DNA of 64,000 nucleotides from Dehalobacterium formicoaceticum (lineage in GTDB: Bacteria > Bacillota > Dehalobacteriia > Dehalobacteriales > Dehalobacteriaceae): positions 2,300,501 to 2,364,500 of the forward strand of contig NZ_CP022121.1 in assembly GCF_002224645.1 (NCBI RefSeq), read 5' to 3'. Under the pieces are notes generated by a model. It was not told the origin of the DNA and searched no databases. It was given only the letters and a program-made list of their open reading frames with translations. Below, piece after piece: positions 4,031 through 60,498 of the stretch. Numbering within the stretch: position 1 is the stretch's first letter; every line of letters begins with the position of its first letter. The translations under genes and the position numbers were made by a program.

Positions 4031-4266
4031 ATCTTTTACCAATGACTTCATGCAATCGTTTTAGTGAATCTTTAACATCTGATTCGTAATAAATATCACG
4101 ATGAGCAGTTTCGGGTATACCGGATACACGAATCAAATAAATCTACTGCCCGGCATCGGTTAGTACGACTGTATTTCTTTAATGCGTAGATAAGACAGTG
4201 CGAATATTAGACCAACGACGATTGTCATTTTTATTGCGTAGTTGATATTCAATACTTAATAACAGT
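4026..4266 (-). pseudogene. C-terminal relic of an IS4-superfamily (IS1634-like) transposase
   Basis: Read on the minus strand, one frame gives about 80 residues ('LLSIEYQLRNKNDNRRWSN', 'NTVVLTDAGQ', 'IYLIRVSGIPETAHRDIY', 'SLKRLHEVIGKRL') interrupted by two stop codons, one of them directly after DAGQ. The pattern resembles the tail of IS1634-type transposases ('LSTHQR..V.LTD....RVS..PE..H..IY'), as I recall that family. It abuts the truncated hydrogenase gene directly, so this element probably caused the loss of the hydrogenase 5' end. The family call is tentative; the presence of a decayed reading frame is clear. Confidence 0.5.
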
Positions 4267-47224: not shown

Positions 47225-47330
47225 GGGGGAGGGGGTTATTGACATTTATTAGGTGTCGACAACCCCGTCCCTCTGTCATTCCGATCGGGAAACAGGTGCT
47301 ATTACCCTAACCTATAAGAGGGACAAGGGG
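47225..47330. repeat. REP relatives downstream of the helicase gene
   Basis: GGGGGTTATTGACA, GGTGTCGACAACCCCGTCCC and CTCTGTCATTCCG at about 47231-47282 match the RAYT-flanking REPs at 42111 and 43106. No gene lies in 47155-47516; the second half belongs to the DUF1801 direct repeat. Confidence 0.65.
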
Positions 47331-47983
47331 ACAGGCACCTTGTCCCTCAAGTTTATTTCTGGTAGAATATCACTTAAGTTAAAAAATGCCAAGGTATGCC
47401 AGAAAGACAAGTAAAAGTGTTGCCCAATGAACTGTGGGAAGTATTCGCCTTAAAGCAATAACTTGCATTATGCAATCCGTGTGTGCCGCAACTTGGCGGC
47501 GGAAGGGAGACCAGCTATGAAAGATTTTCAAATATTTTTAGATAGTATCGGTGAATCGGACAAAAGGGAACGGATGGAAAGCATCCTAAATAACATTAAG
47601 GACATGTTTCCTCAATTGAATGAAGAAATTAAGTGGAATCAGCCGATGTTTAGTGACCATGGAACTTTTATCATCGGTTTTAGTGTTGCTAAAGGGCACA
47701 TTGCGGTAGCGCCTGAAGCGGTGGTCATTAGTTTGTTTGAAAAGGAGATCGAGGAAGCAGGTTATACCCATACACAGGAGCTGTTTAGAATCACATGGAC
47801 GGATAATGTAGATTTTGAATTGTTATATAAAATGGTTGCCTACAACATTGAGGATAAAAAAGATATGACAAATTTTTGGAGGTAATAAAAATAGGTGATA
47901 GAAAGGGAAAGAAAGGGAAAGGGGACAGGCACCTTGTCCCTCGAATTTATTTCTGATAGGGACGATGTACCTGTCCCCCCGTC
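47331..47983 (+). repeat. About 0.65-kb direct repeat, left copy (contains DUF1801 gene A)
   Basis: It begins GGGACAAGGGGACAGG and ends GTACCTGTCCC, with a decayed RAYT start ('MPRYARKTSKS') near 47387. It is highly similar to 49908-50566. Both copies are bounded by the GGGACA palindromes and lie on either side of the ABC transporter genes. Confidence 0.88.
47517..47885 (+). CDS. DUF1801-family protein A
   Basis: A 122-residue protein ('FQIFLDSIGESDKRERMESI', 'FPQLNEEIKWNQPMFSDHGT', 'HIAVAPEAVVISLFEKEIEE') of the YdhG/DUF1801 fold, sometimes called iron-chaperone-like. ATG 47517 has GGAAGGGAGA ahead. It differs from gene B at 50098 by three residues. The family function is poorly known. Confidence 0.8.
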   Translation: MKDFQIFLDSIGESDKRERMESILNNIKDMFPQLNEEIKWNQPMFSDHGTFIIGFSVAKGHIAVAPEAVVISLFEKEIEEAGYTHTQELFRITWTDNVDFELLYKMVAYNIEDKKDMTNFWR

Positions 47984-49801: not shown

Positions 49802-49907
49802 AATACTAGCCACCTTATTTACTTATATTTTTTATATTTTACCCGAAATTTTATAATTTATCTTGGTTGTCGCAATATTCAATTAGATTCAAATACATGT
49901 GGACGAG

Positions 49908-50566
49908 GGGACAGGCACCTTGTCCCCCATGTTTATTTCTGGTAGAATATCACTTAAGTTAAAAAATGCCAAGGTATGCCAGAAAGACAAGTAAAAGTGT
50001 TGCCCAATGAACTGTGGGATGTATTCGTCTTAAAGCAATAACTTGCATTATAGCAATCCGTGTAGGCCGCGACTTGGCGGCGGAAGGGAGACTAGCTATG
50101 AAAGATTTTCAAATATTTTTAGATAGTATCGGTGAATCGGACAAAAGGGAACGGATGGAAAGCATCCTAAATAACATTAAAGACAAGTTTCCTCAATTGA
50201 ATGAAGAAATTAAGTGGAATCAGCCGATGTTTAGTGACCATGGAACTTTTATCATCGGTTTTAGTGTTGCTAAAGGGCATATTGCGGTGGCGCCTGAAGC
50301 GGTGGTCATTAGTCTGTTTGAAAAGGAGATCGAGGAAGCAGGTTATACCCATACACAGGAGCTGTTCAGAATCAAGTGGGCGGATAATGTAGATTTTGAA
50401 TTGTTATATAAAATGGTTGCCTACAACATTGAGGATAAAAAAGATATGACAAATTTTTGGAGGTAATAAAAAAAGGTGGTAGAAAGGGAAAGAAAGGGAA
50501 AGGGGACAGGCACCTTGTTCCTCGAGTTTATTTCTGATAGGGACGATGTACCTGTCCCCCTGTCCC
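49908..50566 (+). repeat. About 0.65-kb direct repeat, right copy (contains DUF1801 gene B)
   Basis: It repeats 47331-47983, including the REP-like ends, the RAYT 5' relic near 49966, the DUF1801 gene and the downstream AAAGGGAAAGAAAGGGAAAG tract. Differences are scattered substitutions and a few single-base indels. Confidence 0.88.
50098..50466 (+). CDS. DUF1801-family protein B
   Basis: Differs from copy A only at three residues (Lys for Met in 'NIKDKFPQ', and 'FRIKWADN' for 'FRITWTDN'). The ribosome binding site and upstream context are the same. The near-identity in a direct repeat indicates a recent duplication. Confidence 0.8.
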   Translation: MKDFQIFLDSIGESDKRERMESILNNIKDKFPQLNEEIKWNQPMFSDHGTFIIGFSVAKGHIAVAPEAVVISLFEKEIEEAGYTHTQELFRIKWADNVDFELLYKMVAYNIEDKKDMTNFWR

Positions 50567-50685: not shown

Positions 50686-51030
50686 ATGGCAAAAAACAGA
50701 ATAATTTGTACAACAAATGATGTTGATTATCTATCAATTAGAAAGGCGATGACTTCTGGTGCAAGAACTATAGAAGAAATAGCAGAGTTAGCAGGAGTAT
50801 GTACTGAGTGTGAAGGATGTAAAAGTGAATTAGAAGCAATACTTTCTTCTGTTTGCGGCTGCAAGAAGGTTTCTTTGGAAGCGGTAGTAAATGCAGTTAA
50901 AAATGGTGCAGATACAGTAGAAAAGGTTGGAGAAGTAACAGGCGCTGGAACAGGTGTAGATGAAGAAACAGGTGAAGAATGTGGAAAATGTAAGGGCCTT
51001 ATCCAAAACATTATTGATTTAGGGAGATAA
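50686..51030 (+). CDS. BFD-like [2Fe-2S] protein with duplicated domain
   Basis: A 114-residue protein built of two similar ~50-residue halves. The first holds 'SIRKAMTSGARTIEEIAELA' and 'GVCTECEGCKSELEAIL'. The second holds 'AVVNAVKNGADTVEKVGEVT' and 'EECGKCKGLIQNII'. The helix-cysteine pattern resembles bacterioferritin-associated ferredoxin-like [2Fe-2S] domains. Iron-sulfur binding is likely; the partner is unknown. ATG 50686 follows AAAGGAGATAC. It ends 17 bp before arr, so both may be co-transcribed. Confidence 0.75.
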   Translation: MAKNRIICTTNDVDYLSIRKAMTSGARTIEEIAELAGVCTECEGCKSELEAILSSVCGCKKVSLEAVVNAVKNGADTVEKVGEVTGAGTGVDEETGEECGKCKGLIQNIIDLGR

Positions 51031-51047: not shown

Positions 51048-51527
51048 ATGGTGGGCGAAAAAGAAATACTTAATAATCTCGAAAAGCTAACCACTGAAAC
51101 TGGATTAGAGAAATTATTGAATAAACCCATAGACACCGGCCCTTTCTACCATGGCACAAAAGCCGATTTAAAGGTTGGGGATTTGCTGGAACCTGGCTTT
51201 AGTTCTAATTATGGTAAGCGAAAGAAGGCTAACTTCATCTATTTCACCGCAACCATGGATGCGGCGATTTGGGGAGCAGAACTTGCGGTTGGTGATCATC
51301 CAGGTCGGATCTATCAAGTGGAGCCCATCGATACTTTTGAGAATGATCCTAATTTAACTGATAAGAAATTCCCAGGCAATCCGACAAGGTCTTATCGTAC
51401 CAAGCAACCGCTGCGAATAGTGGGCGAAGTCTTGGAATGGGAGGGACATTCTCCAGAGGTGCTCCAGAACATGTTAGATAACCTTGAGAAGCTAAAATCG
51501 CAAGGGATCGAGGCAATTAACGAATGA
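51048..51527 (+). CDS. arr: Rifampin ADP-ribosyltransferase (Arr)
   Basis: Arr transfers ADP-ribose from NAD to a hydroxyl of rifamycin antibiotics and inactivates them. The Arr fingerprint is clear: 'PFYHGTKADLKVGDLLEPGF', 'YFTATMDAAIWGAELAVG', 'GRIYQVEPIDTFENDPNLTD', 'FPGNPTRSYRTKQPLRIVGE' and 'EWEGHSPEVL'. At 159 residues it has an extra ~25-residue N-terminal helix compared with the ~140-residue usual length. ATG 51048 is preceded by GGGAGGC. A natural (non-plasmid) arr in an environmental Firmicute is plausible. Confidence 0.92.
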   Translation: MVGEKEILNNLEKLTTETGLEKLLNKPIDTGPFYHGTKADLKVGDLLEPGFSSNYGKRKKANFIYFTATMDAAIWGAELAVGDHPGRIYQVEPIDTFENDPNLTDKKFPGNPTRSYRTKQPLRIVGEVLEWEGHSPEVLQNMLDNLEKLKSQGIEAINE

Positions 51528-51851: not shown

Positions 51852-52286
51852 ATGTTTGATATAGACACTTGTTTATACTATATAACAGGAAACTCTGCCA
51901 GGAAAATAAACGAGGCAGTTAATGAGAGGGTATTTAAAAATGGAGTTACCTCGGTTCAATGGATAGCTTTATACAATATAGGTAAATATGAAAAAATTAG
52001 TCAAACGGACCTTTGTCATGCAATGAATAAAAAACCATCTACAGTTGCCAGGCTAATTGATAGAATGGAAAAAGAAGGATATGTATTAAGGCAAAGAAGT
52101 TCTGAGGACAGAAGGGTGATATATTTAAGTTTAACCGACAAGGGAACAAGGGCAAGGGTAGATTTATTACCGAAAGCAGATAAGCTGAGCAAGATTGTCA
52201 GTCAAGGAATTTCAGAGGAACATTTGGCAATCTTTAAGAATGTATTGAAAACAATGTCTGAAAATGTGAGCAAAGAAGAAGAGTGA
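51852..52286 (+). CDS. MarR-family regulator, possibly OhrR-like
   Basis: A 144-residue MarR protein: 'NERVFKNGVTSVQWIALYNI', DNA-binding 'SQTDLCHAMNKKPSTVARLIDRMEKEGYV', wing 'RQRSSEDRRVIYLSLTDKG'. A single Cys lies at residue 7 ('DIDTCLYYITG'), close to the position of the reactive N-terminal Cys of OhrR-type peroxide sensors. Because it precedes an OsmC gene, peroxide sensing is plausible but unproven. ATG 51852 follows AGGGGGAATT. A terminator separates it from osmC, which has its own promoter. Confidence 0.85.
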   Translation: MFDIDTCLYYITGNSARKINEAVNERVFKNGVTSVQWIALYNIGKYEKISQTDLCHAMNKKPSTVARLIDRMEKEGYVLRQRSSEDRRVIYLSLTDKGTRARVDLLPKADKLSKIVSQGISEEHLAIFKNVLKTMSENVSKEEE

Positions 52287-52317
52287 AAAAGGCTTTAATA
52301 TTAACTAAGTTTTAGGG

Positions 52318-52348
52318 TTGCATCACCTATGAGTGATGCAGCTTTTTT
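52318..52348 (+). terminator. Terminator of the marR gene
   Basis: TTGCATCAC / GTGATGCAG stem with CTATGA loop followed by CTTTTTTCT. Confidence 0.8.
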
Positions 52349-52430
52349 CTTTTTTTAATAAAGATCTGTATTTAAAAGAATACATAATTAAATAATTATT
52401 AAAATGATTAGCAAAAAACCACTAAATCCG

Positions 52431-52498
52431 TTGACTTTATCATGTCGGCTGATATAATAGTTGTAATAGCAATTATTTTATGCAAACACTGCTATTAC
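52431..52498 (+). promoter_or_regulatory. osmC promoter with inverted-repeat operator candidate
   Basis: TTGACT (52431-52436) and TATAAT (52453-52458) are 16 bp apart. Downstream, GTAATAGC (52463-52470) and GCTATTAC (52491-52498) form a perfect inverted repeat over the expected transcription start region, a good candidate site for the upstream MarR protein. Confidence 0.75.
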
Positions 52499-52524
52499 TC
52501 AAAATGTGTAAAGGAGTCGATACC

Positions 52525-52968
52525 ATGGAATTAATGACATTGAAAGCTGTTGTGAGAAAAAAAGAAGGTCTGGCAGTTGAAGCTGAAGCAAGAGGATTTA
52601 AGGTTATATTTGATGAGCCGGAAGATCTGGGCGGAACAGATACCGGCATGAACCCGGTTGAAGCTATGTTATGCAGCCTTGGCGGGTGCCAGGCAATTGC
52701 TGCTTTATCATTTGCAGACGATGTGGGGATAGACGTACAAGACTTTTGGGTAGAGCTGGAAGGCGATCTTGACCTTGAAGGTTTCAAAGGATTATCTGAA
52801 GCAAGACCTGGATGCTCAGATATTAGATTCCATATGCATATTAAAAGTGACTCTCCCGCAGATAAAATCGAAGAATTTATCGAGCTTGTTGAATCCAGGT
52901 GCCCAGTGGGGGATTCGTTAGCAAACGGAGTAAAACTGGAAAGAACTAAAATAACCATAGAAAAATAA
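52525..52968 (+). CDS. OsmC/Ohr-family thiol peroxidase-like protein
   Basis: A 147-residue OsmC-fold protein with the two family cysteines: Cys55 in 'SLGGCQAIAA' (peroxidatic position) and Cys126 in 'ESRCPVGDSL'. Members reduce organic hydroperoxides; studied Ohr/OsmC enzymes take electrons from lipoylated proteins and dihydrolipoyl dehydrogenase. The next two genes encode exactly such partners. ATG 52525 follows AAAGGAG. An extra Cys50 precedes the motif. Peroxidase activity and the lipoyl link are inferred from family and context. Confidence 0.88.
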   Translation: MELMTLKAVVRKKEGLAVEAEARGFKVIFDEPEDLGGTDTGMNPVEAMLCSLGGCQAIAALSFADDVGIDVQDFWVELEGDLDLEGFKGLSEARPGCSDIRFHMHIKSDSPADKIEEFIELVESRCPVGDSLANGVKLERTKITIEK

Positions 52969-53048
52969 TTAGAAGTTTTTAGGGGACAACTAGATGGTAA
53001 GGGGAGCTAGTGTCCTCTTAATATACAGGGGAATTTTGGAGGGAAATC

Positions 53049-54716
53049 ATGATCATTGAAATAAAGAGTCCCAAAAAAGGGACTATAGGTAAAATAAATG
53101 TAAGTGTGGGTGATAAAGTTACAGCGGGTCAAGAGCTATTATCATTAGAAACTAAGAAGGGTAATGCAGTTGTTAAATCCCAACATGACGGAGCTGTAGA
53201 ATCTATCGAGGTAGAGGAAGGGGCAGAAGTAAAGGCTTTAGATATTTTATTGAAAATTGCCGGATCACAAGAGACGGCTGTTCAGAAAACTGAGGAAAAA
53301 GTTAAATCTGAAGAAAAAATCGAATGTGATTTAACTATTATCGGCGGAGGTCCCGGCGGGTATGTGGCCGCTATTAAAGGGGCAAAACTGGGGGCTAAAG
53401 TCGTATTGATTGAGGAAGGAGCTTTAGGGGGGACCTGCTTAAATTATGGATGTATCCCGACCAAAGCCCTTGTGCGATCGGCGGAAGTATTTGATAGCTT
53501 TAAAGAAGCTGCTGAGTATGGATTAAGTGCCAAAGACTTCCGTGTGGATATGGAAAAGGTTATCGACCGAAAAAATGCTATTGTCAGTAAATTGGTGGGA
53601 GGGGTAGAAGACCTCTTAGAAAAAAATAATATCAGAGTAATTTCCGGCAGGGGAAAACTGATAAATAAAGACACTGTTCAAGCAGAAACAGAAGATAAGA
53701 TTATCGAAGTAAATAGCAAGGATATCATCATCGCCACAGGCTCTGAACCCTCATGTCCCCCTATTCCCGGAGCAAATTCTAAAAGCGTCGTGACCAGTAA
53801 AGAAATATTGGATCTGAAGGAGCTTCCCGAAAAGTTTGCCATAGTAGGCGGCGGAGTAATAGGAATGGAAATTGCTTTTATATTTGCTTCTTTCGGGGTG
53901 GAGGTATTTGTCATCGAATTCTTGGATGATGTGCTTCAGACCTTAGATGAGGACGTAATTGAAGAAATAAAAACGGCGGCAGAACAAAAGGGCATCAAGA
54001 TTTATACAGGTTCAGAGGTTGAAGAAGTAATAGACACATTAAATGAAAAGTCCATGGTAAGGTTTACAAAAGATGGAAGACCAGAATATTTATCCGTCGA
54101 CAAGATACTCATGTGCACCGGGAGAAGACCTTATCTTGAAGGATTAGGCATAGAAGCAGTTGGCATAGAACTAAATGAAAACAAAAGAGGCATTAAAGTA
54201 AATGAGAAAATGCAAACCAATATCGACAATATCTATGCTATCGGCGATGTTACCGATATCATGCAGCTTGCTCATGTAGCTTCTCATCAGGGAATTGTGG
54301 CTGTCGAAAATATCATGGGACATAATGCAGAAATGGATTATTCGGCGGTACCCAGTGCCATATTTACCCACCCGGAAATTGCCACAGTAGGATTAACTGA
54401 AAAGGAGGCTCAATCAAAGGGATTAAACATAGAAGTAGGCAAATTTCCTTATGCCGCCAATGGTAAAGCACTTACCGTGGGAGATGATCGGGGATTTATT
54501 AAAATTATCAAAGATCAAGATACAGAAAAAATCGTAGGAGCACATATCATCGGCATAAATGCAGCTGATTTAATATCCTCTTTAACAATAGCCGTTAAAA
54601 ATGGGTTGACGACAAAACAAATCACAGAGACAATTTTTGCTCATCCCACAACTGCAGAGGTGATCCATGAAGGTGTTCTCTCTGTAGAAGGAGGAGCATT
54701 GCATTTTGCCGAATAA
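53049..54716 (+). CDS. lpdA: Dihydrolipoyl dehydrogenase with N-terminal lipoyl domain
   Basis: A 555-residue fusion. Residues 1-75 are a biotinyl/lipoyl domain ('KGTIGKINVSVGDKVTAGQE' to 'LETKKGNAVVKS'; Lys37 is the expected lipoylated residue). After an acidic linker ('EEKVKSEEKIE') comes a complete E3 flavoprotein: FAD motif 'IIGGGPGGYVAAIKGAKLG', redox disulfide 'GGTCLNYGCIPTKAL' (Cys130/Cys135), NAD motif 'IVGGGVIGMEIAFIFASFG' and the active-site end 'HAHPTTAE'-like 'FAHPTTAEVIHEG'. It can therefore reduce its own lipoyl arm with NADH. No 2-oxoacid dehydrogenase genes are near. It lies 80 bp after osmC and overlaps the lipoate ligase by 11 bp. Confidence 0.93.
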   Translation: MIIEIKSPKKGTIGKINVSVGDKVTAGQELLSLETKKGNAVVKSQHDGAVESIEVEEGAEVKALDILLKIAGSQETAVQKTEEKVKSEEKIECDLTIIGGGPGGYVAAIKGAKLGAKVVLIEEGALGGTCLNYGCIPTKALVRSAEVFDSFKEAAEYGLSAKDFRVDMEKVIDRKNAIVSKLVGGVEDLLEKNNIRVISGRGKLINKDTVQAETEDKIIEVNSKDIIIATGSEPSCPPIPGANSKSVVTSKEILDLKELPEKFAIVGGGVIGMEIAFIFASFGVEVFVIEFLDDVLQTLDEDVIEEIKTAAEQKGIKIYTGSEVEEVIDTLNEKSMVRFTKDGRPEYLSVDKILMCTGRRPYLEGLGIEAVGIELNENKRGIKVNEKMQTNIDNIYAIGDVTDIMQLAHVASHQGIVAVENIMGHNAEMDYSAVPSAIFTHPEIATVGLTEKEAQSKGLNIEVGKFPYAANGKALTVGDDRGFIKIIKDQDTEKIVGAHIIGINAADLISSLTIAVKNGLTTKQITETIFAHPTTAEVIHEGVLSVEGGALHFAE

Positions 54717-55704
54717 TTGTGCGTTAAAACTGGTTAGATCCTTGAGTTTCAATCCTTGGTATAACTTAGCTGTCGAAGAGGAGCTTTTTAGGAATATAAA
54801 ATCGGATCAAGTAATACTCTACCTATGGCAAAATGAAAATACCGTAGTAATCGGCAGAAATCAAAACCCCTGGCGAGAGTGCCGATGTAAAATATTAGAA
54901 GAGCATGGCGGAAAGTTAGCCAGAAGACTTTCCGGTGGTGGAGCAGTTTATCACGACTTGGGTAATTTAAATTTTACCTTTGTCGCCAAAGAAGGCGCCT
55001 TTAATATCAAGAAACAACTGGAAGTAATTATTGAGGCAGTTAAACTTAAGGGCATTGATGCTGAGTTTTCCGGAAGAAATGATATTGTCGCCCAGGGAAA
55101 GAAATTTTCAGGGAATGCATTTTACTATGATGATGATAACTGCTATCACCACGGTACCCTTCTGGTCGCATCAGATATGAAAAAAATACAGCAATATCTC
55201 CAGGTGAGTAAGGAAAAAATAAAATCAAAGGGAGTTAATTCGGTTGAATCCCGAGTGGTAAATCTTAACACGATCAATCCCGGCTTAGATATTAATAATT
55301 TAAGTGCAGCCTTAGAGCAAAGCTTTCAACAAGTATATCATGGTACGATCAGCGAAACCAAGGTGATAGATGAGGATATGGGCAGCGTTAAAAAGCTTTA
55401 TGAAAAATACTCTTCATGGAATTGGCGCTATGGAGAATCGCCAAAATTTGAAATGACACTTTATCACAGATTCAAGTGGGGAGATTTAGATATTAATTTT
55501 AATTTAAAAGATGGGCATATCAGCAAGGTAACTGTATTCTCCGATGCCATCGATTGTAAACTAATCAAAGATATCGAAGAAGTATTGCTGGGAATAGAGT
55601 TTTCTAAAAAAGCCATCTTAATGAATCTGGAAAATTTAAAAAATCGATATGATAAAAATTTAATTGATGAAATAAAGAACTGGATCGACGAAAAAGAAAT
55701 ATAG
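54706..55704 (+). CDS. lplA: Lipoate-protein ligase A
   Basis: A 332-residue ligase that activates lipoate with ATP and attaches it to a lysine. Motifs: 'QNENTVVIGRNQNPWRE', 'ARRLSGGGAVYHDLGNLNF', 'SGRNDIVAQGKKFSGNAF' (catalytic Lys region) and 'HHGTLLV'. The C-terminal ~90 residues form the accessory domain of full-length LplA. TTG 54706 lies inside the lpdA 3' end behind GAAGGAGGAG. Its coupling to a lipoyl-domain dehydrogenase suggests a dedicated job: lipoylating LpdA. Confidence 0.93.
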   Translation: MPNNCALKLVRSLSFNPWYNLAVEEELFRNIKSDQVILYLWQNENTVVIGRNQNPWRECRCKILEEHGGKLARRLSGGGAVYHDLGNLNFTFVAKEGAFNIKKQLEVIIEAVKLKGIDAEFSGRNDIVAQGKKFSGNAFYYDDDNCYHHGTLLVASDMKKIQQYLQVSKEKIKSKGVNSVESRVVNLNTINPGLDINNLSAALEQSFQQVYHGTISETKVIDEDMGSVKKLYEKYSSWNWRYGESPKFEMTLYHRFKWGDLDINFNLKDGHISKVTVFSDAIDCKLIKDIEEVLLGIEFSKKAILMNLENLKNRYDKNLIDEIKNWIDEKEI

Positions 55705-55877
55705 GAACTTATATAATCTCGATACAAGCAATAATTATGGCCATTGAATTCCCGAATTGTCGACTAATTAAAAACTTGCTATAATGACCGGAGTATATAA
55801 ATATATTCTGGTCATTATTTCCTAATAAGATAGGTATCGTTGCTCAAAAGAATGCTAAATTGAAAGAAGGTGAAGCT

Positions 55878-57260
55878 ATGGCCGAAACGCACCTGACACA
55901 AAGCCGTCAGACTGTCAACCTCGGATTGATCATCGTTACTAAGCAGCTTTTTCCTGAGGAATCACTAAAAATCGCCTATTCCATACAGGAAGCACTATTC
56001 TGCCGGTTTACAGAAACGGCAATTTCAGTTAGAGAAGTCCGCCAGATTGATTTGAAACTGAAAGAATGGATTCTGACCGACCCCGATATTGAGTTTTTAA
56101 GCCGGGAGGGGGGATATTATCATTACCGGGTCGCAGGTAACGTTATTAAGATGCTTTATCCCTGCGAAACCAGCGTCGAAACGATTGGTCCTTTCGACCT
56201 GATTCCTTACGCAGACGGATTCATTATATCCTTTAGGGAAGATGGCCAAATCAATACTTTGTTGGTTCCGCCGGACAAACTCTCCGCCACATATGATAAG
56301 ACACAAAAGTGGCTGAAGAACATTAAGTTGGAGCTTTTGCGTGATGTTAACAGCTATATCGCAAGCGGGGCAACCCTCAAGTTGATCGGGATGGCAGAAG
56401 CTTTGCAAGAGAAGGAGATCTCGAATATTGCAGATGTGATACTTCAACGGAAAAAAATCCTGCGGGTGCTTCTCATTTCTGGGGCATCTTCTTCCGGCAA
56501 GACCTCTTTTTCTCAAAGATTGTCGACTCAGTTGAGCGTAAACGGATTTAATCCGATCACACTTTCTTTGGATGATTATTTTGTGGACAGGGAAAAATCC
56601 CCGCGCGATGCGTGTGGAAGGTATGATTTCGACTGCGTAGAAGCATTAGATATTAAATTTATGCAGCAGCAGCTGTCAGATCTGATTGATGGGAAGACGG
56701 TAGAGACGCCGATTTTCGATTTTAAAACCGGCCTCCGTTCCTCAAAAACAAGAAAATTGCATGTCGGTCCTGATGATATCCTGGTAGTGGAGGGTATCCA
56801 TGCTTTGAACCCCATTTTGTTTCCTAATATTAACAGAATCATCTTATTTAAAGTGTACATTACGGCTCTTTACGAATTGAATATCGACTTGATAAACAGA
56901 GTCCCAAGCACGGAAGTTAGAATGATCAGAAGAATTGTCAGAGGGGATCAATTCCGTGATACCCATCCGGAGGAAACGCTGAAGCAGTGGGATAACGTGA
57001 GACTTGGGGAATACAAAAATATATTTAAGTTCCAGGAAGAAGCTGATGTCATGTTCAATTCCAGTCTTCTCTACGAAGTGAATGCCCTTAGGCCATATGC
57101 AGAAGAATCTCTGAATAAAATTGAGGATGACAGCCCATTTGCGGAGACAAAGGAACGTTTGCTGAGAATTATATCTTTCTTTGAGCCAATGGATACTGCA
57201 AAAGTCCCTTTCAATTCCATATTGCGTGAATTTATTGGAGGAAGTATCTATTTTGATTAG
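55878..57260 (+). CDS. Nucleoside (uridine) kinase-like protein
   Basis: About 460 residues. The C-terminal half is a P-loop kinase of the uridine kinase/phosphoribulokinase type: 'ISGASSSGKTSFSQRL' (~200), 'SLDDYFVDREKSPRDACGRY', 'DFDCVEALD', 'FDFKTGLRSS' and 'LVVEGIHALNP'. The N-terminal ~190 residues resemble the threonyl-tRNA-synthetase-like part commonly fused to this kinase in clostridia, though the His/Cys editing-type motif is not obvious. ATG 55878 follows GAAGGTG. The physiological substrate is uncertain. It separates lplA from the SBP-like gene. Confidence 0.85.
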   Translation: MAETHLTQSRQTVNLGLIIVTKQLFPEESLKIAYSIQEALFCRFTETAISVREVRQIDLKLKEWILTDPDIEFLSREGGYYHYRVAGNVIKMLYPCETSVETIGPFDLIPYADGFIISFREDGQINTLLVPPDKLSATYDKTQKWLKNIKLELLRDVNSYIASGATLKLIGMAEALQEKEISNIADVILQRKKILRVLLISGASSSGKTSFSQRLSTQLSVNGFNPITLSLDDYFVDREKSPRDACGRYDFDCVEALDIKFMQQQLSDLIDGKTVETPIFDFKTGLRSSKTRKLHVGPDDILVVEGIHALNPILFPNINRIILFKVYITALYELNIDLINRVPSTEVRMIRRIVRGDQFRDTHPEETLKQWDNVRLGEYKNIFKFQEEADVMFNSSLLYEVNALRPYAEESLNKIEDDSPFAETKERLLRIISFFEPMDTAKVPFNSILREFIGGSIYFD

Positions 57261-57356
57261 ATTGATGGAATTTCAATGGAATTTCAATGGTAAAGGAAGA
57301 ATATATGCAGATATCAGGAAGATATCGAATAGATAGAATGATTCAGGAGGTGGGCC

Positions 57357-58094
57357 ATGATTATTGAAGAAAAAACCTCAAAGATGAGATCCCTTTCAGA
57401 CTTCGAAAATGCAACTTTTGCAATTGTAGAAGGAATGGTTTATGATGAGTGGGTTTTAAAACTGCTGCCTGAGGCACATTTCCACTATTTCAGAACGATA
57501 AATGATTGTCTTGCGGCATTGAAGAATGGTGACGTGGAAGTCTTTCCTTATGAGGATGTCATGCTAAGATATATTTCAGCAAATTTACATGAATCGTTTA
57601 CAATTATAAACATTGATAACGTTAACGTTAAAGTTGATGATTACGGATTTGCTGTGAACTTTAACAGACCGGATTTAAAGAAAGCAATAGACGATACCAT
57701 TGCTGAAATTAAAGCTAATGGTATTTATGAAAAAATGATAAAAAGATGGTTTCCGAAAGTCGGGGCGACAGGAATTATGCCCAAAATTGAATTGACCGGG
57801 AAAAATGGAACATTAAAATTAGGAACAAGCGCGGTGGAGAGACCTTTTACATTTATTGTGGGAGATAAAGTAACTACAGGTTTTGATATTGAGTTAGCCA
57901 AGCGCATATGCAGCAGATTGGACATGGATCTGGAAATTACCGATATTCTTTTTTCAGAGTTGATAGCTTCACTTGTTTCTGGTGAAGTGGATATGATTGG
58001 GGCTGCTGTTATCATTACGGAAGAGAGGGCTAAGAAGGTTCTCTTTTCGGAGCCTTATTTTCAAGGCAAAATGGCATTTTTAGTTAAATTATGA
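57357..58094 (+). CDS. Solute-binding-protein-like (family 3) domains without signal peptide
   Basis: A 245-residue protein. Residues ~15-125 resemble the C-terminal lobe of a family 3 solute-binding protein ('FAIVEGMVYDEWVLKLLPEA', 'IEKMIKRWFP'-like 'GIYEKMIKRWFP'). Residues ~145-245 begin a second one ('GTLKLGTSAVERPFTFIVGD', 'GFDIELAKRICSRLDMDLEI', 'SEPYFQGKMAFLVKL') but stop halfway. No signal peptide or membrane helix is visible. GGAGGTGGGCC precedes ATG 57357, so it looks expressed. It may be a fragment of a tandem-SBP sensor protein or a cytoplasmic amino-acid-binding protein. Its 3' end overlaps the convergent macrodomain gene by 6 bp. Confidence 0.65.
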   Translation: MIIEEKTSKMRSLSDFENATFAIVEGMVYDEWVLKLLPEAHFHYFRTINDCLAALKNGDVEVFPYEDVMLRYISANLHESFTIINIDNVNVKVDDYGFAVNFNRPDLKKAIDDTIAEIKANGIYEKMIKRWFPKVGATGIMPKIELTGKNGTLKLGTSAVERPFTFIVGDKVTTGFDIELAKRICSRLDMDLEITDILFSELIASLVSGEVDMIGAAVIITEERAKKVLFSEPYFQGKMAFLVKL

Positions 58095-58880
58095 GCTGAG
58101 AATATCTCGATAGATCATAAAATCCCGGTCAGTGAAGACATTAAAGACCACCTGAATTGGGGTTTGCCCTAGGGTTCGTTGAACACCTTGAAAATCGGTC
58201 ACAGCGGCCACAGCAATTAAAGCGGCAAGCTCTTGCGGGAAATTGAAGACTCCCGTAGAGATGCACGGAAAGGCAATATTAGTCAGTCCATGGTCTTGCG
58301 CCAGCTTCAAACTGGAAATATAGGAGGAGCGCAATGCTTCCTGGGCTTGGGTACCCGGAGCTTGACCGGGTGGGATTGCCGGGCCTACCGTGTGAATGAC
58401 ATATTTTGCGGGCAGTTGGTAACCAGGCGATATTTTAGCAAGGCCCACTCCTTCATCATGACCCTGCTTGACCATCAGATCATTCATATAGAGGCGCATT
58501 TTGACACCGGCCCGGGTATGGATGATGTTATCGATGCAAGAATGATTGGGTACAAAGCAGCCTAAGAGCTGACTGTTGGCAGCATTAACGATGGTGTCTA
58601 ACTGAAGCTGGGTAATATCTCCTTGCCACAAGTATTGATTGGCCCGGATGGGGGTTAGGTCTGCTAAAGTAATCCTATCCCGGCTTTGATTTTCTTCTGC
58701 CAGAAAGCTGTCTTCAATTGCTAAAAATTCTTCCGAAATCTCCTGGGGCGGGCGGATATTGATTAAAGCCCGCAGATATTCTTTTGCCTGGTCCTGGGGT
58801 CTGGTAAGATCAATTGTTTCGTTCCCCCGTTCCTTTTCCAGGTAATTAATCATATAGTTGATCCGGTCTTGTTGATCCAT
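58089..58880 (-). CDS. Zinc-dependent macrodomain ADP-ribosyl hydrolase
   Basis: A 263-residue protein: a helical N-terminal ~75 residues, then a macrodomain ('WQGDITQLQLDTIVNAANSQ', 'GVGLAKISPGYQLPAKYVIH', 'HTVGPAIPPG', 'IAFPCISTGVFNFP'). The insert 'LLGCFVPNHSCIDNIIH' holds Cys108, His113 and Cys115, the zinc ligands of the SirTM-associated macrodomain class that removes ADP-ribose from modified lipoyl carrier protein. ATG 58880 follows GGAGG and directly adjoins the SirTM stop. Both genes form one minus-strand operon. Function is from family knowledge. Confidence 0.9.
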   Translation of the reverse strand: MDQQDRINYMINYLEKERGNETIDLTRPQDQAKEYLRALINIRPPQEISEEFLAIEDSFLAEENQSRDRITLADLTPIRANQYLWQGDITQLQLDTIVNAANSQLLGCFVPNHSCIDNIIHTRAGVKMRLYMNDLMVKQGHDEGVGLAKISPGYQLPAKYVIHTVGPAIPPGQAPGTQAQEALRSSYISSLKLAQDHGLTNIAFPCISTGVFNFPQELAALIAVAAVTDFQGVQRTLGQTPIQVVFNVFTDRDFMIYRDILSS

Positions 58881-59793
58881 TTAATGACCTCCTTGTTGAC
58901 TCAATCTGTATAAATCTTTGATCGGTAAAGCAAGATCTCCGTAAATAGGCATGGCTCGATCTAAGAGATAATCTGGGATCGGCTGTTTTTCCACAGATAA
59001 GTTGACATAATAAGCTTTAGGGTTCTCACGGGCCATGCGTAAGAATGGATATTTAATAATAACCGGGGTATTGTAGCCCACACCCATTTCCAAATAGAGG
59101 ATCCGCTTGTCTTTATTTTTTTCCAAAAAGTTGGTATAACGTTCTTTGGCTTGATACCAACCTTGATCTTGAACAAAGCGGCTATCCACCCGGCCATTTT
59201 TAGTCATGGGCCCGCCGCATTTGGGACAGACCGGGACTAATTCTTTGGGGATTTTCAAGTTTTCATCAGTCTGCTGATACATAGCCATGAGCAGATCTGA
59301 AGCATCATAGGTTTCTTGGTGGCAAGGAGTGGCACATTGGATGAGGCCAAAGGATCCTTGGGTATAAAATAGTTTTGTTTTATCAAATCCGTTGGTAATG
59401 AATTGATGGTCAACATTGGTTGTAATAATAGGTTGTAATAATAAAATGGTTGAAATCCTGAAACAATTGTTTCAGCATCTGGTAAGTCTCATTAGAGTCT
59501 TCCCGGTAGCGGAAAACATAGCAGAGGCATGCCCAAAATGCCCAAAATTCCTCTTTGCTTGGATATGGGTAGAAAATTCCGGCATAGGCATCATCGAAGC
59601 CGTATTTTTTCTGGAATTGTGAGAAATATTCATTGAAGAGGGGCCCGCCAAAATCATAACCTGCCGCGGTTGAAAAACCAAAACCAGATCCGGCACCAAT
59701 CACGATAGCATCTGCTTCATGCATTAATTTATAAAGGGCTTGAACCCGTTCGGGATAAGTGAGCTCCGGAAGAGTGTCATAAATTCGTTCCAT
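58881..59793 (-). pseudogene. SirTM-type sirtuin, frameshifted by a 13-bp duplication
   Basis: The N-terminal frame (59793 to 59410) carries 'ADAIVIGAGSGFGFSTAAGY' and 'FNHFIIT'. The C-terminal frame carries 'NVDHQF', 'LFYTQGSFGLIQC', 'TPCHQETYD' and 'VCPKCGGPM'. A perfect tandem duplication of GGTTGTAATAATA (59418-59430, 59431-59443) causes the shift; deleting one unit gives one 299-residue protein. Gln in 'TQG' replaces the catalytic His of ordinary sirtuins, as in SirTM enzymes, which ADP-ribosylate lipoylated carrier protein. Two CxxC-like pairs should bind zinc. AGGAGGATC precedes ATG 59793. Confidence 0.92.
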
Positions 59794-60123
59794 AGTAATA
59801 GATCCTCCTGAATAGATATCATTCGCTTATTAAATGAGCGTATGTATATTATACTCACATCGCTAAAGAGATTGAAGTTATAAGCAAAATTATTAGCAGC
59901 TAATAATTTTAATAGTTACTTGTTTATAAATAGCAATACCTGTATAATTATAATAATGCTATGATAAGAAACAGGAGCCGGAAGATCCAACAGATAAAAC
60001 AAATATATTGGGAGCCTTGATAGGATATGGATATAGGATATATGCTTATTAGCTTTTTTGCTCTTCCCGGAAATATTCTTGCTATACTTTACTGGGCTTT
60101 CAACATTGTAAGGAGTTAGAATT
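59794..60123. promoter_or_regulatory. Divergent promoter region between SirTM and HxlR genes
   Basis: On the minus strand TATAAT-like sequence (about 59848-59853) precedes the SirTM start, with an imperfect palindrome CGCTTATTAAATGAGCG at 59828-59844. The remainder is AT-rich and holds no gene. The HxlR protein may act at this shared region. Confidence 0.55.
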
Positions 60124-60498
60124 ATGTATGAACCAAAATTAGAAAAAGATATCCGCTGTCCCTTAGAATATGGCCTGCAAATATTCGGCGGAAAGTGGAA
60201 GTCACGTATTATCTGTGTGCTTGCTGAGAAAGAAGTACTACGTTACAGCGCTTTAAGAAAAGAGATGACCAATATAACTGATGCCGTTTTGGCGTCAACA
60301 TTAAAAGAATTGATGAATGATGACATTGTGAATCGGAAGCAATTTGATGAGATTCCGCCTAAGGTTGAATACAGCTTGACTGAAAAAGGAAAATCAGTAT
60401 TACCGATCTTGCAGAATATATGCCGATGGTCAGGTGCTTATCATAAAGATGATAATGAAAAGACACTTTTGCAATGCCAGAAGTGTGATTATATATAA
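60124..60498 (+). CDS. HxlR-family transcriptional regulator
   Basis: A 124-residue winged-helix regulator: 'RCPLEYGLQIFGGKWKSRII', 'LRYSALRKEMTNITDAVLAS' and 'YSLTEKGKSVLPIL'. Cys12 in the conserved 'CP' position is the redox- or electrophile-sensing site in several HxlR members (YodB/HypR type). Two further cysteines end the protein ('LLQCQKCDYI'). AAGGAG lies 10 bp ahead of ATG 60124. It is divergent from SirTM-macrodomain, a typical layout for a direct regulator. Confidence 0.88.
   Translation: MYEPKLEKDIRCPLEYGLQIFGGKWKSRIICVLAEKEVLRYSALRKEMTNITDAVLASTLKELMNDDIVNRKQFDEIPPKVEYSLTEKGKSVLPILQNICRWSGAYHKDDNEKTLLQCQKCDYI

What the first reader, a model, noticed from the sequence alone, without database searches (positions are those of the whole stretch)
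51852..60498. Lipoyl-redox and SirTM/macrodomain neighbourhood: a possible ADP-ribosylation-controlled, lipoyl-dependent peroxidase system
Seen: marR, osmC (both family cysteines), a dihydrolipoyl dehydrogenase fused to its own lipoyl domain (Lys37), and lplA. About 2.4 kb on lie a zinc-macrodomain and a SirTM-type sirtuin with a divergent hxlR carrying the redox-sensing Cys. Known: SirTM enzymes ADP-ribosylate a lipoylated GcvH-like carrier and the linked macrodomain reverses this; Ohr/OsmC peroxidases can use lipoyl groups reduced by dihydrolipoyl dehydrogenase. Inferred: here the carrier is the lipoyl domain built into the dehydrogenase, feeding OsmC, with ADP-ribosylation as an off-switch. 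No 2-oxoacid dehydrogenase or glycine-cleavage gene is present to explain the lipoyl parts otherwise.
Basis: partly seen in the sequence, partly recalled or inferred. Interest (0 to 1): 0.88.

Follow-up and report, generated by a model that had tools for sequence, protein, structure and literature searches.

The report
Self-contained lipoyl peroxidase operon
An anaerobic bacterium carries a small operon whose enzyme appears to bring its own lipoic-acid arm to recharge a peroxide-destroying partner; similar operons recur in other bacteria with one of two alternative partners, but the nearby ADP-ribosylation genes are a separate, partly broken system.

Summary
The genes are real, but the finding joins two unrelated neighbours. 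The window is Dehalobacterium formicoaceticum DMC (exactly 3,766,545 bp).

First half, upheld and strengthened. marR, osmC, lipoyl-lpd and lplA form a recurring cassette. Of 12 lipoyl-Lpd loci of one clade, 11 have a thiol-peroxidase-type neighbour: OsmC in 5, AhpD-like in 6. Seven carry the same MarR, 7 carry LplA. Lipoyl Lys37, both OsmC cysteines and the AhpD CxxC are invariant. The MarR sensing cysteine is invariant, except in Acetoanaerobium noterae, where it is an in-frame UGA in a selenocysteine-decoding genome. Unfused relatives lack such neighbours (0 of 9). Ohr/OsmC and AhpD are both known lipoyl-dependent proteins, so the swap points to one function: NADH → Lpd → its own lipoyl arm → OsmC or AhpD.

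Second half, not supported. The SirTM gene is broken by an exact 13-bp tandem duplication before its catalytic Asn. SirTM/Zn-macrodomain pairs lie near no lipoyl gene in 19 other genomes; 9 of those have no detectable GcvH. Overlap with lipoyl-Lpd genomes is at chance. The macrodomain is of the minimal-operon type. The genome has its own gcv cluster with separate lpd and lplA.

Function is inferred; nothing was assayed.

The parts
51852..52286 (+). marR: MarR-family regulator with an N-terminal cysteine (Cys7) at the OhrR sensing position
   Evidence: PF01047; Cys7 invariant in 5 aligned cassette MarRs and also Cys in Paenibacillus sp. 37, UGA in A. noterae
52314..52345 (+). terminator-like hairpin between marR and osmC (13 pairs, then T-rich run)
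52431..52458 (+). promoter-like site TTGACT-16-TATAAT in front of osmC (11 of 12 consensus bases)
52456..52476 (-). weak candidate MarR operator ATAATTGCTATTACAACTATT, overlapping the -10 box
   Evidence: 4 mismatches to the motif ATTGCTATACTAATNATT found upstream of the peroxidase gene in C. bovifaecis, L029, L031, L032, L037; 4 of 400 control stretches as good
52480..52968 (+). osmC: OsmC-family protein (likely start 52525), two redox cysteines
   Evidence: PF02566 E 7.3e-23; C55 and C126 (from ATG 52525) invariant in 7 relatives; Ohr/OsmC fold, Z 17.4 to 1lql, 12.7 to 6ebg
53049..54716 (+). lipoyl-lpd: dihydrolipoyl dehydrogenase with N-terminal lipoyl domain (residues 4-70) and a flexible linker (about 74-84)
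   Evidence: TIGR01350 548.8 bits, cut-off 408.8; PF00364; low-confidence linker in the model
53157..53159 (+). codon of Lys37, predicted lipoyl attachment site
   Evidence: E34 and K37 invariant in 10 of 10 aligned fusions
54706..55704 (+). lplA: lipoate-protein ligase, overlapping lipoyl-lpd by 11 bp; second copy in the genome
   Evidence: TIGR00545 373.7 bits, cut-off 280; other copy in the gcv cluster
58089..58880 (-). Zn-macrodomain gene; separate system
   Evidence: NF003163 over cut-off; nearest solved relative 8rsi, MorMacro
58881..59793 (-). SirTM (class M sirtuin) gene, frame broken; separate system
   Evidence: two pieces match 5a3a; aligned with intact SirTMs
59418..59443 (-). exact 13-bp tandem duplication TATTATTACAACC x2 that breaks SirTM just before the catalytic Asn
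60124..60498 (+). hxlR, divergent from SirTM; separate system
   Evidence: PF01638; Cys-Pro conserved in 7 HxlRs at SirTM loci

Best explanation
osmC, lipoyl-lpd and lplA, under the adjacent MarR, form a self-contained lipoyl-dependent thiol-peroxidase cassette. LplA lipoylates Lys37 of the Lpd fusion. The FAD/NAD part of Lpd passes electrons from NADH to its own lipoyl arm, and the dihydrolipoyl arm reduces the disulfide that OsmC forms after destroying a peroxide. In sister cassettes an AhpD-like CxxC protein takes the place of OsmC. MarR represses the peroxidase promoter until its N-terminal cysteine is oxidised. Shown: the genes, invariant residues, recurrence, OsmC/AhpD exchange, shared upstream motif. 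Inferred: lipoylation, electron path, peroxide as substrate, MarR control. The SirTM/Zn-macrodomain pair is a chance neighbour whose writer gene is broken.
For: Recurrence: 12 lipoyl-Lpd loci of one clade have OsmC (window, C. bovifaecis, G407, G324, Paenibacillus sp. 37) or AhpD-like (L029, L030, L031, L032, L037, A. noterae) as neighbour, with one exception, L036. Leaving out C. bovifaecis, which was found through OsmC, the count in the first survey is 8 of 9 fused against 0 of 9 unfused Lpds (counts; 2.1e-4 by hand; with C. bovifaecis 1.1e-4). The fused clade is separate from the gcv-type Lpds. A. noterae and Paenibacillus were found by Lpd similarity alone and both fit. A tblastn of the A. 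noterae MarR over 72,556 plasmid records hits only those two cassettes. The operator-like motif precedes osmC1 and osmC2 in C. bovifaecis and ahpD in L029, L031, L032 and L037. The genome's gcv cluster has its own lpd and lplA, and no E2 was found, so this pair is not needed for glycine cleavage. Ohr is reduced by LpdA alone in X. fastidiosa and C. glutamicum, OsmC by lipoyl systems and AhpD by lipoylated proteins (PMC8945050; PMC4486171; PMC3469484). C. violaceum Ohr with dihydrolipoamide is a solved structure, and the OsmC model shares its fold (6ebg, Z 12.7).
Against: No activity was tested. The OsmC belongs to a branch nearer to OsmC-related (seleno)proteins (NF041052, below cut-off) than to classical Ohr or OsmC, and its substrate is unknown. 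The window's operator-like site is weak. L036 has neither partner, and 5 of 12 loci lack MarR and 5 lack LplA. The Paenibacillus cassette lies next to thioredoxin and rhodanese-type genes, which may point to sulfur species instead of peroxides. Some loci are close kin (L031 and L032), so the counts are not fully independent. The survey scored only 3 candidates per genome.
Confidence: 0.75

Rival explanations
1. ADP-ribosylation switch: SirTM ADP-ribosylates the lipoylated Lpd fusion to stop electron flow, and the Zn-macrodomain reverses it.
For: Both systems lie within 9 kb. SirTM of the extended operon modifies a lipoylated carrier (PMC4518038). The Zn-macrodomain gene is intact.
Against: SirTM is broken. 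No co-occurrence in 398 genomes beyond chance. No lipoyl gene at 19 other SirTM loci; 9 of those genomes have no detectable GcvH. Minimal-operon Zn-macrodomain MorMacro, the nearest solved relative, could not demodify GcvH-L (PMC11490716).
Confidence: 0.03
2. The cassette reduces sulfur or other disulfide species (persulfides, low-molecular-weight disulfides), not peroxides; OsmC/AhpD is a thiol reductase fed by the lipoyl arm.
For: The OsmC is of the YhfA/OsmC-related branch, not classical Ohr. The Paenibacillus cassette sits beside thioredoxin and rhodanese-type genes. The hosts include strict anaerobes.
Against: Biochemically known Ohr, OsmC and AhpD act on peroxides or peroxidase partners; the MarR has the OhrR-type cysteine position.
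Confidence: 0.18
3. The lipoyl-Lpd is simply the E3 of a 2-oxoacid dehydrogenase or of glycine cleavage, and OsmC is a bystander.
For: More distant lipoyl-Lpds (about 35-36% identical) do sit in E1-E2-Lpd operons in C. difficile and Vescimonas.
Against: No E2 found in this genome; gcv cluster has its own lpd and lplA; this clade sits with OsmC or AhpD in 11 of 12 loci.
Confidence: 0.04

Closest known systems
Lipoyl-dependent Ohr/OsmC peroxidase with LpdA (Xylella fastidiosa, Corynebacterium glutamicum; Cussiol 2010 as cited in PMC8945050 and PMC3469484; PMC4486171)
   Same: OsmC-family two-cysteine protein; a single lipoylated Lpd (LpdA) alone can supply electrons from NAD(P)H in vitro
   Different: Here the donor, the peroxidase-type partner, a dedicated ligase and a regulator are packed in one cassette, and the partner can be OsmC or AhpD; no such cassette was named in the papers found
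Mycobacterial AhpD-lipoamide (SucB/Lpd) peroxide system (Bryk 2002, cited in PMC8945050)
   Same: AhpD CxxC protein reduced by a lipoylated protein and Lpd
   Different: The lipoyl carrier is fused to Lpd, not on an E2; no AhpC seen in the cassettes
OhrR (MarR-family, one-cysteine peroxide sensor)
   Same: MarR domain with N-terminal cysteine, adjacent to an OsmC/Ohr-family gene
   Different: Scores far below the NCBIfam OhrR model; accompanies lipoyl-Lpd cassettes; one member has UGA at that cysteine
Extended SirTM operon (GcvH-L, LplA2, Zn-macrodomain, SirTM; PMC4518038)
   Same: Zn-macrodomain next to a SirTM gene
   Different: No GcvH-L or LplA in the unit; SirTM broken; best matches the minimal-operon type

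Membership tests
Ohr/OsmC lipoyl-dependent peroxidase | OsmC domain and fold | tested here: met
   PF02566 E 7.3e-23; model mean pLDDT 88, Z 17.4 to 1lql, 13.6 to E. coli OsmC 1nye
Ohr/OsmC lipoyl-dependent peroxidase | Two conserved redox cysteines | tested here: met
   C55 and C126 (from ATG 52525) invariant in 7 sequences
Ohr/OsmC lipoyl-dependent peroxidase | Belongs to the classical Ohr or OsmC subfamily | tested here: inconclusive
   Best NCBIfam model is OsmC-related (seleno)protein at 74.8 bits, cut-off 95
Ohr/OsmC lipoyl-dependent peroxidase | Peroxide reduction driven by a lipoylated protein | not testable with these tools
   needs biochemistry
Lipoyl-domain dihydrolipoyl dehydrogenase | Lpd equivalog with GGTCLNxGC(I/V)PTK and N-terminal lipoyl domain with invariant Lys | tested here: met
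   TIGR01350 over cut-off, PF00364, K37 invariant in 10 of 10
Lipoyl-domain dihydrolipoyl dehydrogenase | Part of an E1-E2 2-oxoacid dehydrogenase operon (usual context) | tested here: not met
   No E1/E2 at the locus; only three PF00364 places in the genome, two of which I read as biotin carriers and one as this Lpd
OhrR-type one-cysteine MarR sensor | MarR domain with N-terminal sensing cysteine | tested here: met
   PF01047; Cys7 invariant
OhrR-type one-cysteine MarR sensor | Reaches the curated OhrR model | tested here: not met
   NF052638 36.7 bits, cut-off 200
SirTM (class M sirtuin) | QG in place of HG, GVGx[NT]TP motif | tested here: met
   TQGSFG and GVGYNTP in the C-terminal piece; definition from PMC4518038
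SirTM (class M sirtuin) | Intact reading frame through the catalytic TTN | tested here: not met
   13-bp tandem duplication shifts the frame
Zn-macrodomain | Cx4HxC zinc loop and N-terminal extension | tested here: met
   C-FVPN-H-S-C; aligned over residues 2-261 to 8rsi; definition from PMC11490716
Extended SirTM operon | GcvH-L and LplA2 in the same operon | tested here: not met
   GcvH places are at 3.60 and 2.00 Mb; the lplA is on the other strand beyond two unrelated genes

The most novel reading that the evidence does not exclude
A mobile, self-contained lipoyl peroxidase cassette, with donor, ligase, interchangeable OsmC/AhpD partner and its own regulator, whose MarR sensor uses a single redox residue that in Acetoanaerobium noterae is selenocysteine: a selenoprotein transcription regulator of the MarR family.
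Probability: 0.45. Interest if true: 0.72.

Novelty: new variant of a known kind. Interest (0 to 1): 0.55.

Why it matters
Ohr, OsmC and AhpD are known to draw electrons from lipoylated proteins, but usually borrow them from central-metabolism complexes. This cassette would be a dedicated version that works without any 2-oxoacid dehydrogenase, which would explain why an E2-less anaerobe keeps a lipoyl-Lpd and a second lipoate ligase. The OsmC/AhpD exchange next to one donor gives a direct test of what the lipoyl arm recognises. A UGA at the sensing cysteine of the A. noterae MarR would, if it is selenocysteine, be a selenium-based redox-sensing repressor, a class not in the prokaryotic selenoprotein review read here (PMC9312934). 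It also warns against reading SirTM/macrodomain neighbours as lipoyl switches: minimal SirTM pairs occur in genomes with no detectable GcvH, so their target is probably something else.

Tried and rejected
SirTM control of the lipoyl-Lpd: rejected on context. A nearby GcvH-like carrier as SirTM partner: none near the SirTM in this genome or in 19 others. Phase variation by the 13-bp repeat as an on/off switch of SirTM: not excluded, but the extra 6-bp repeat in the NAD loop and changed conserved positions favour decay; no second strain could be read. Sequencing error: an exact 13-bp duplication is not a typical PacBio error, but reads were not available. Literature searches for a described cassette found none; subscription papers are not in the library. 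The single genome-contig scan with OsmC gave only three loci. The window's operator-like site was first noticed by eye, so the pattern was partly fitted to it; only the test with the motif from other genomes should be weighed. No operator-like motif was found at ahpD/osmC in L030, L083, A. noterae or Paenibacillus.
Full report
WHERE. The window is 2300501-2364500 of a single-contig genome of 3,766,545 bp. That is exactly the length published for Dehalobacterium formicoaceticum DMC, a strict anaerobe that grows on dichloromethane (PMC5597755).

OBSERVATION. All named genes were checked by Pfam and NCBIfam. marR, osmC, lipoyl-lpd and lplA are on the + strand; lplA overlaps lpd by 11 bp. A strong terminator-like hairpin lies between marR and osmC, followed by a promoter-like site, so osmC-lpd-lplA is probably one transcript and marR another. 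The SirTM/Zn-macrodomain pair is on the - strand beyond a uridine-kinase-like gene and a solute-binding-protein gene, with hxlR divergent.

SIRTM IS BROKEN. The gene reads in two pieces. The N-terminal piece (59413-59793) and the C-terminal piece (58884-59411) each match the S. pyogenes SirTM 5a3a. Between them an exact 13-bp tandem duplication (59418-59443) shifts the frame right before the catalytic asparagine. A 6-bp tandem repeat also lengthens the NAD-binding loop relative to six intact SirTMs. The only other Sir2-family match in the genome is at 2.87 Mb.

THE SIRTM/ZN-MACRODOMAIN PAIR IS A SEPARATE SYSTEM. In the same 398 genomes of the phylum, the lipoyl-Lpd fusion occurs in 8 and the Zn-macrodomain in 20; they share only the window's genome. 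Of 19 other Zn-macrodomain loci, 15 have SirTM next door, none has Lpd, LplA, OsmC or GcvH nearby, and 6 have an HxlR gene within about 6 kb. Nine of the 19 genomes have no GcvH match at all and four only marginal ones. The closest solved Zn-macrodomain is 8rsi, MorMacro from a minimal operon. Its authors report that MorMacro and the fusion-type Zn-macrodomains do not demodify GcvH-L and that the targets of such pairs are unknown (PMC11490716).

THE LIPOYL CASSETTE RECURS. Twelve lipoyl-Lpd loci of this clade were read. OsmC is the neighbour in the window, C. bovifaecis (two copies, L038), L083 (G407), L033 (G324, divergent) and Paenibacillus sp. 37 plasmid pART37 (L088). An AhpD-core CMD protein is the neighbour in L029, L030, L031, L032, L037 and A. 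noterae (L087). L036 has neither. MarR of one family is present in 7 and LplA in 7. Nine unfused Lpds, including two of the same clade, have neither OsmC nor AhpD beside them. A. noterae and Paenibacillus came from a search by Lpd alone after the pattern was seen, so they are an independent check. More distant lipoyl-Lpds (about 35-36% identity) sit in ordinary E1-E2-Lpd operons. In the tree, built before A. noterae and Paenibacillus were found, the fused clade is separate from gcv-type Lpds (100/99); OsmC occurs in two well-supported groups, but the deep branching is unresolved. The three other genomes of the family lack the fusion at that threshold and the closest relative is C. bovifaecis (77% over the Lpd part), which suggests horizontal transfer (inference).

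RESIDUES. E34 and K37 of the lipoyl domain are invariant; C. bovifaecis, L030 and L033 even carry two lipoyl domains in tandem. C55 and C126 of OsmC are invariant. The AhpD-like proteins keep C-E-Y-C-I-V-x-H. The MarR cysteine is invariant in five aligned cassette MarRs and present in Paenibacillus.

REGULATION. The motif ATTGCTATACTAATNATT precedes both osmC genes of C. bovifaecis and ahpD in L029, L031, L032 and L037, in several cases as a dyad; chance expectation is low. The window has a weaker match overlapping the -10 box (4 of 400 control stretches as good). L030, L083, A. noterae and Paenibacillus show no such match.

GENOME CONTEXT. A separate cluster gcvT-gcvH-gcvPA-gcvPB-lpd-lplA at 3.59 Mb supplies Lpd and LplA for glycine cleavage. 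PF00364 finds only three places in the genome: two I read as biotin carriers from their frames, and this Lpd. So the window's lpd and lplA have no other evident client than each other and OsmC (inference).

MECHANISM. Ohr of X. fastidiosa works with LpdA alone, OsmC is reduced by lipoyl systems and AhpD by lipoylated proteins (PMC8945050). In C. glutamicum, LpdA supports Ohr with cumene hydroperoxide (PMC4486171). Since the two known lipoyl-dependent partner types replace each other beside the same lipoyl-Lpd, the simplest reading is NADH to FAD to Cys pair to lipoyl-Lys37 to OsmC or AhpD to peroxide. The OsmC model has the Ohr/OsmC fold and matches Ohr solved with dihydrolipoamide (6ebg). Peroxide as the true substrate is inferred; the OsmC is not clearly of the classical subfamilies.

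A SIDE FINDING. In A. noterae the MarR frame has a TGA exactly at the sensing cysteine (MNFNLDR-U-VGHIT against MFDIDT-C-LYYIT). There is a ribosome-binding site, and a stem-loop starts 13 nt downstream (z -2.59). The genome has selA and tRNA-Sec. A single-base nonsense change at that codon cannot be excluded from one genome, and the hairpin loop does not fit the usual bacterial SECIS rule perfectly (memory). No MarR is mentioned in the prokaryotic selenoprotein review read here (PMC9312934).

VERDICT. Cassette: real, recurrent, likely a self-contained lipoyl thiol-peroxidase system; a new variant of a known kind. ADP-ribosylation control: not supported.

Noticed in passing
L087:4014-4448 (Acetoanaerobium noterae NZ_CP154629.1), TGA at 4035-4037: Cassette MarR with an in-frame TGA exactly at the invariant sensing cysteine, stem-loop downstream, in a genome with selA and tRNA-Sec: candidate selenocysteine MarR sensor.
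   Followed up: partly
L060, L062, L063, L064, L069, L075: Minimal SirTM/Zn-macrodomain operons repeatedly sit near HxlR, radical SAM/SPASM, nitroreductase and PNPOx-like (often ferredoxin-fused) flavoprotein genes, which may point to their real targets.
   Followed up: partly
L085:6382-10267 (genome 1.99-2.00 Mb); also L017, L018: Cluster of Lpd, iron-sulfur and DGC-domain proteins, one a DGC domain fused to a GcvH-type lipoyl carrier; kept in two other genomes of the family.
   Followed up: partly
51048-51527: Intact rifampin ADP-ribosyltransferase (Arr) gene just upstream of marR, after a BFD-like [2Fe-2S] gene at 50686-51030.
   Followed up: no
47321-47771 and 49901-50352: About 450-bp direct repeat (97% identical) flanking an ABC transporter pair, with four copies of a 41-nt GGGGACAGGCACCTTGTCCC hairpin repeat.
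   Followed up: no
L038:10545-12470, L030:9127-11103, L033:9112-11043: Lipoyl-Lpds with two tandem N-terminal lipoyl domains.
   Followed up: no
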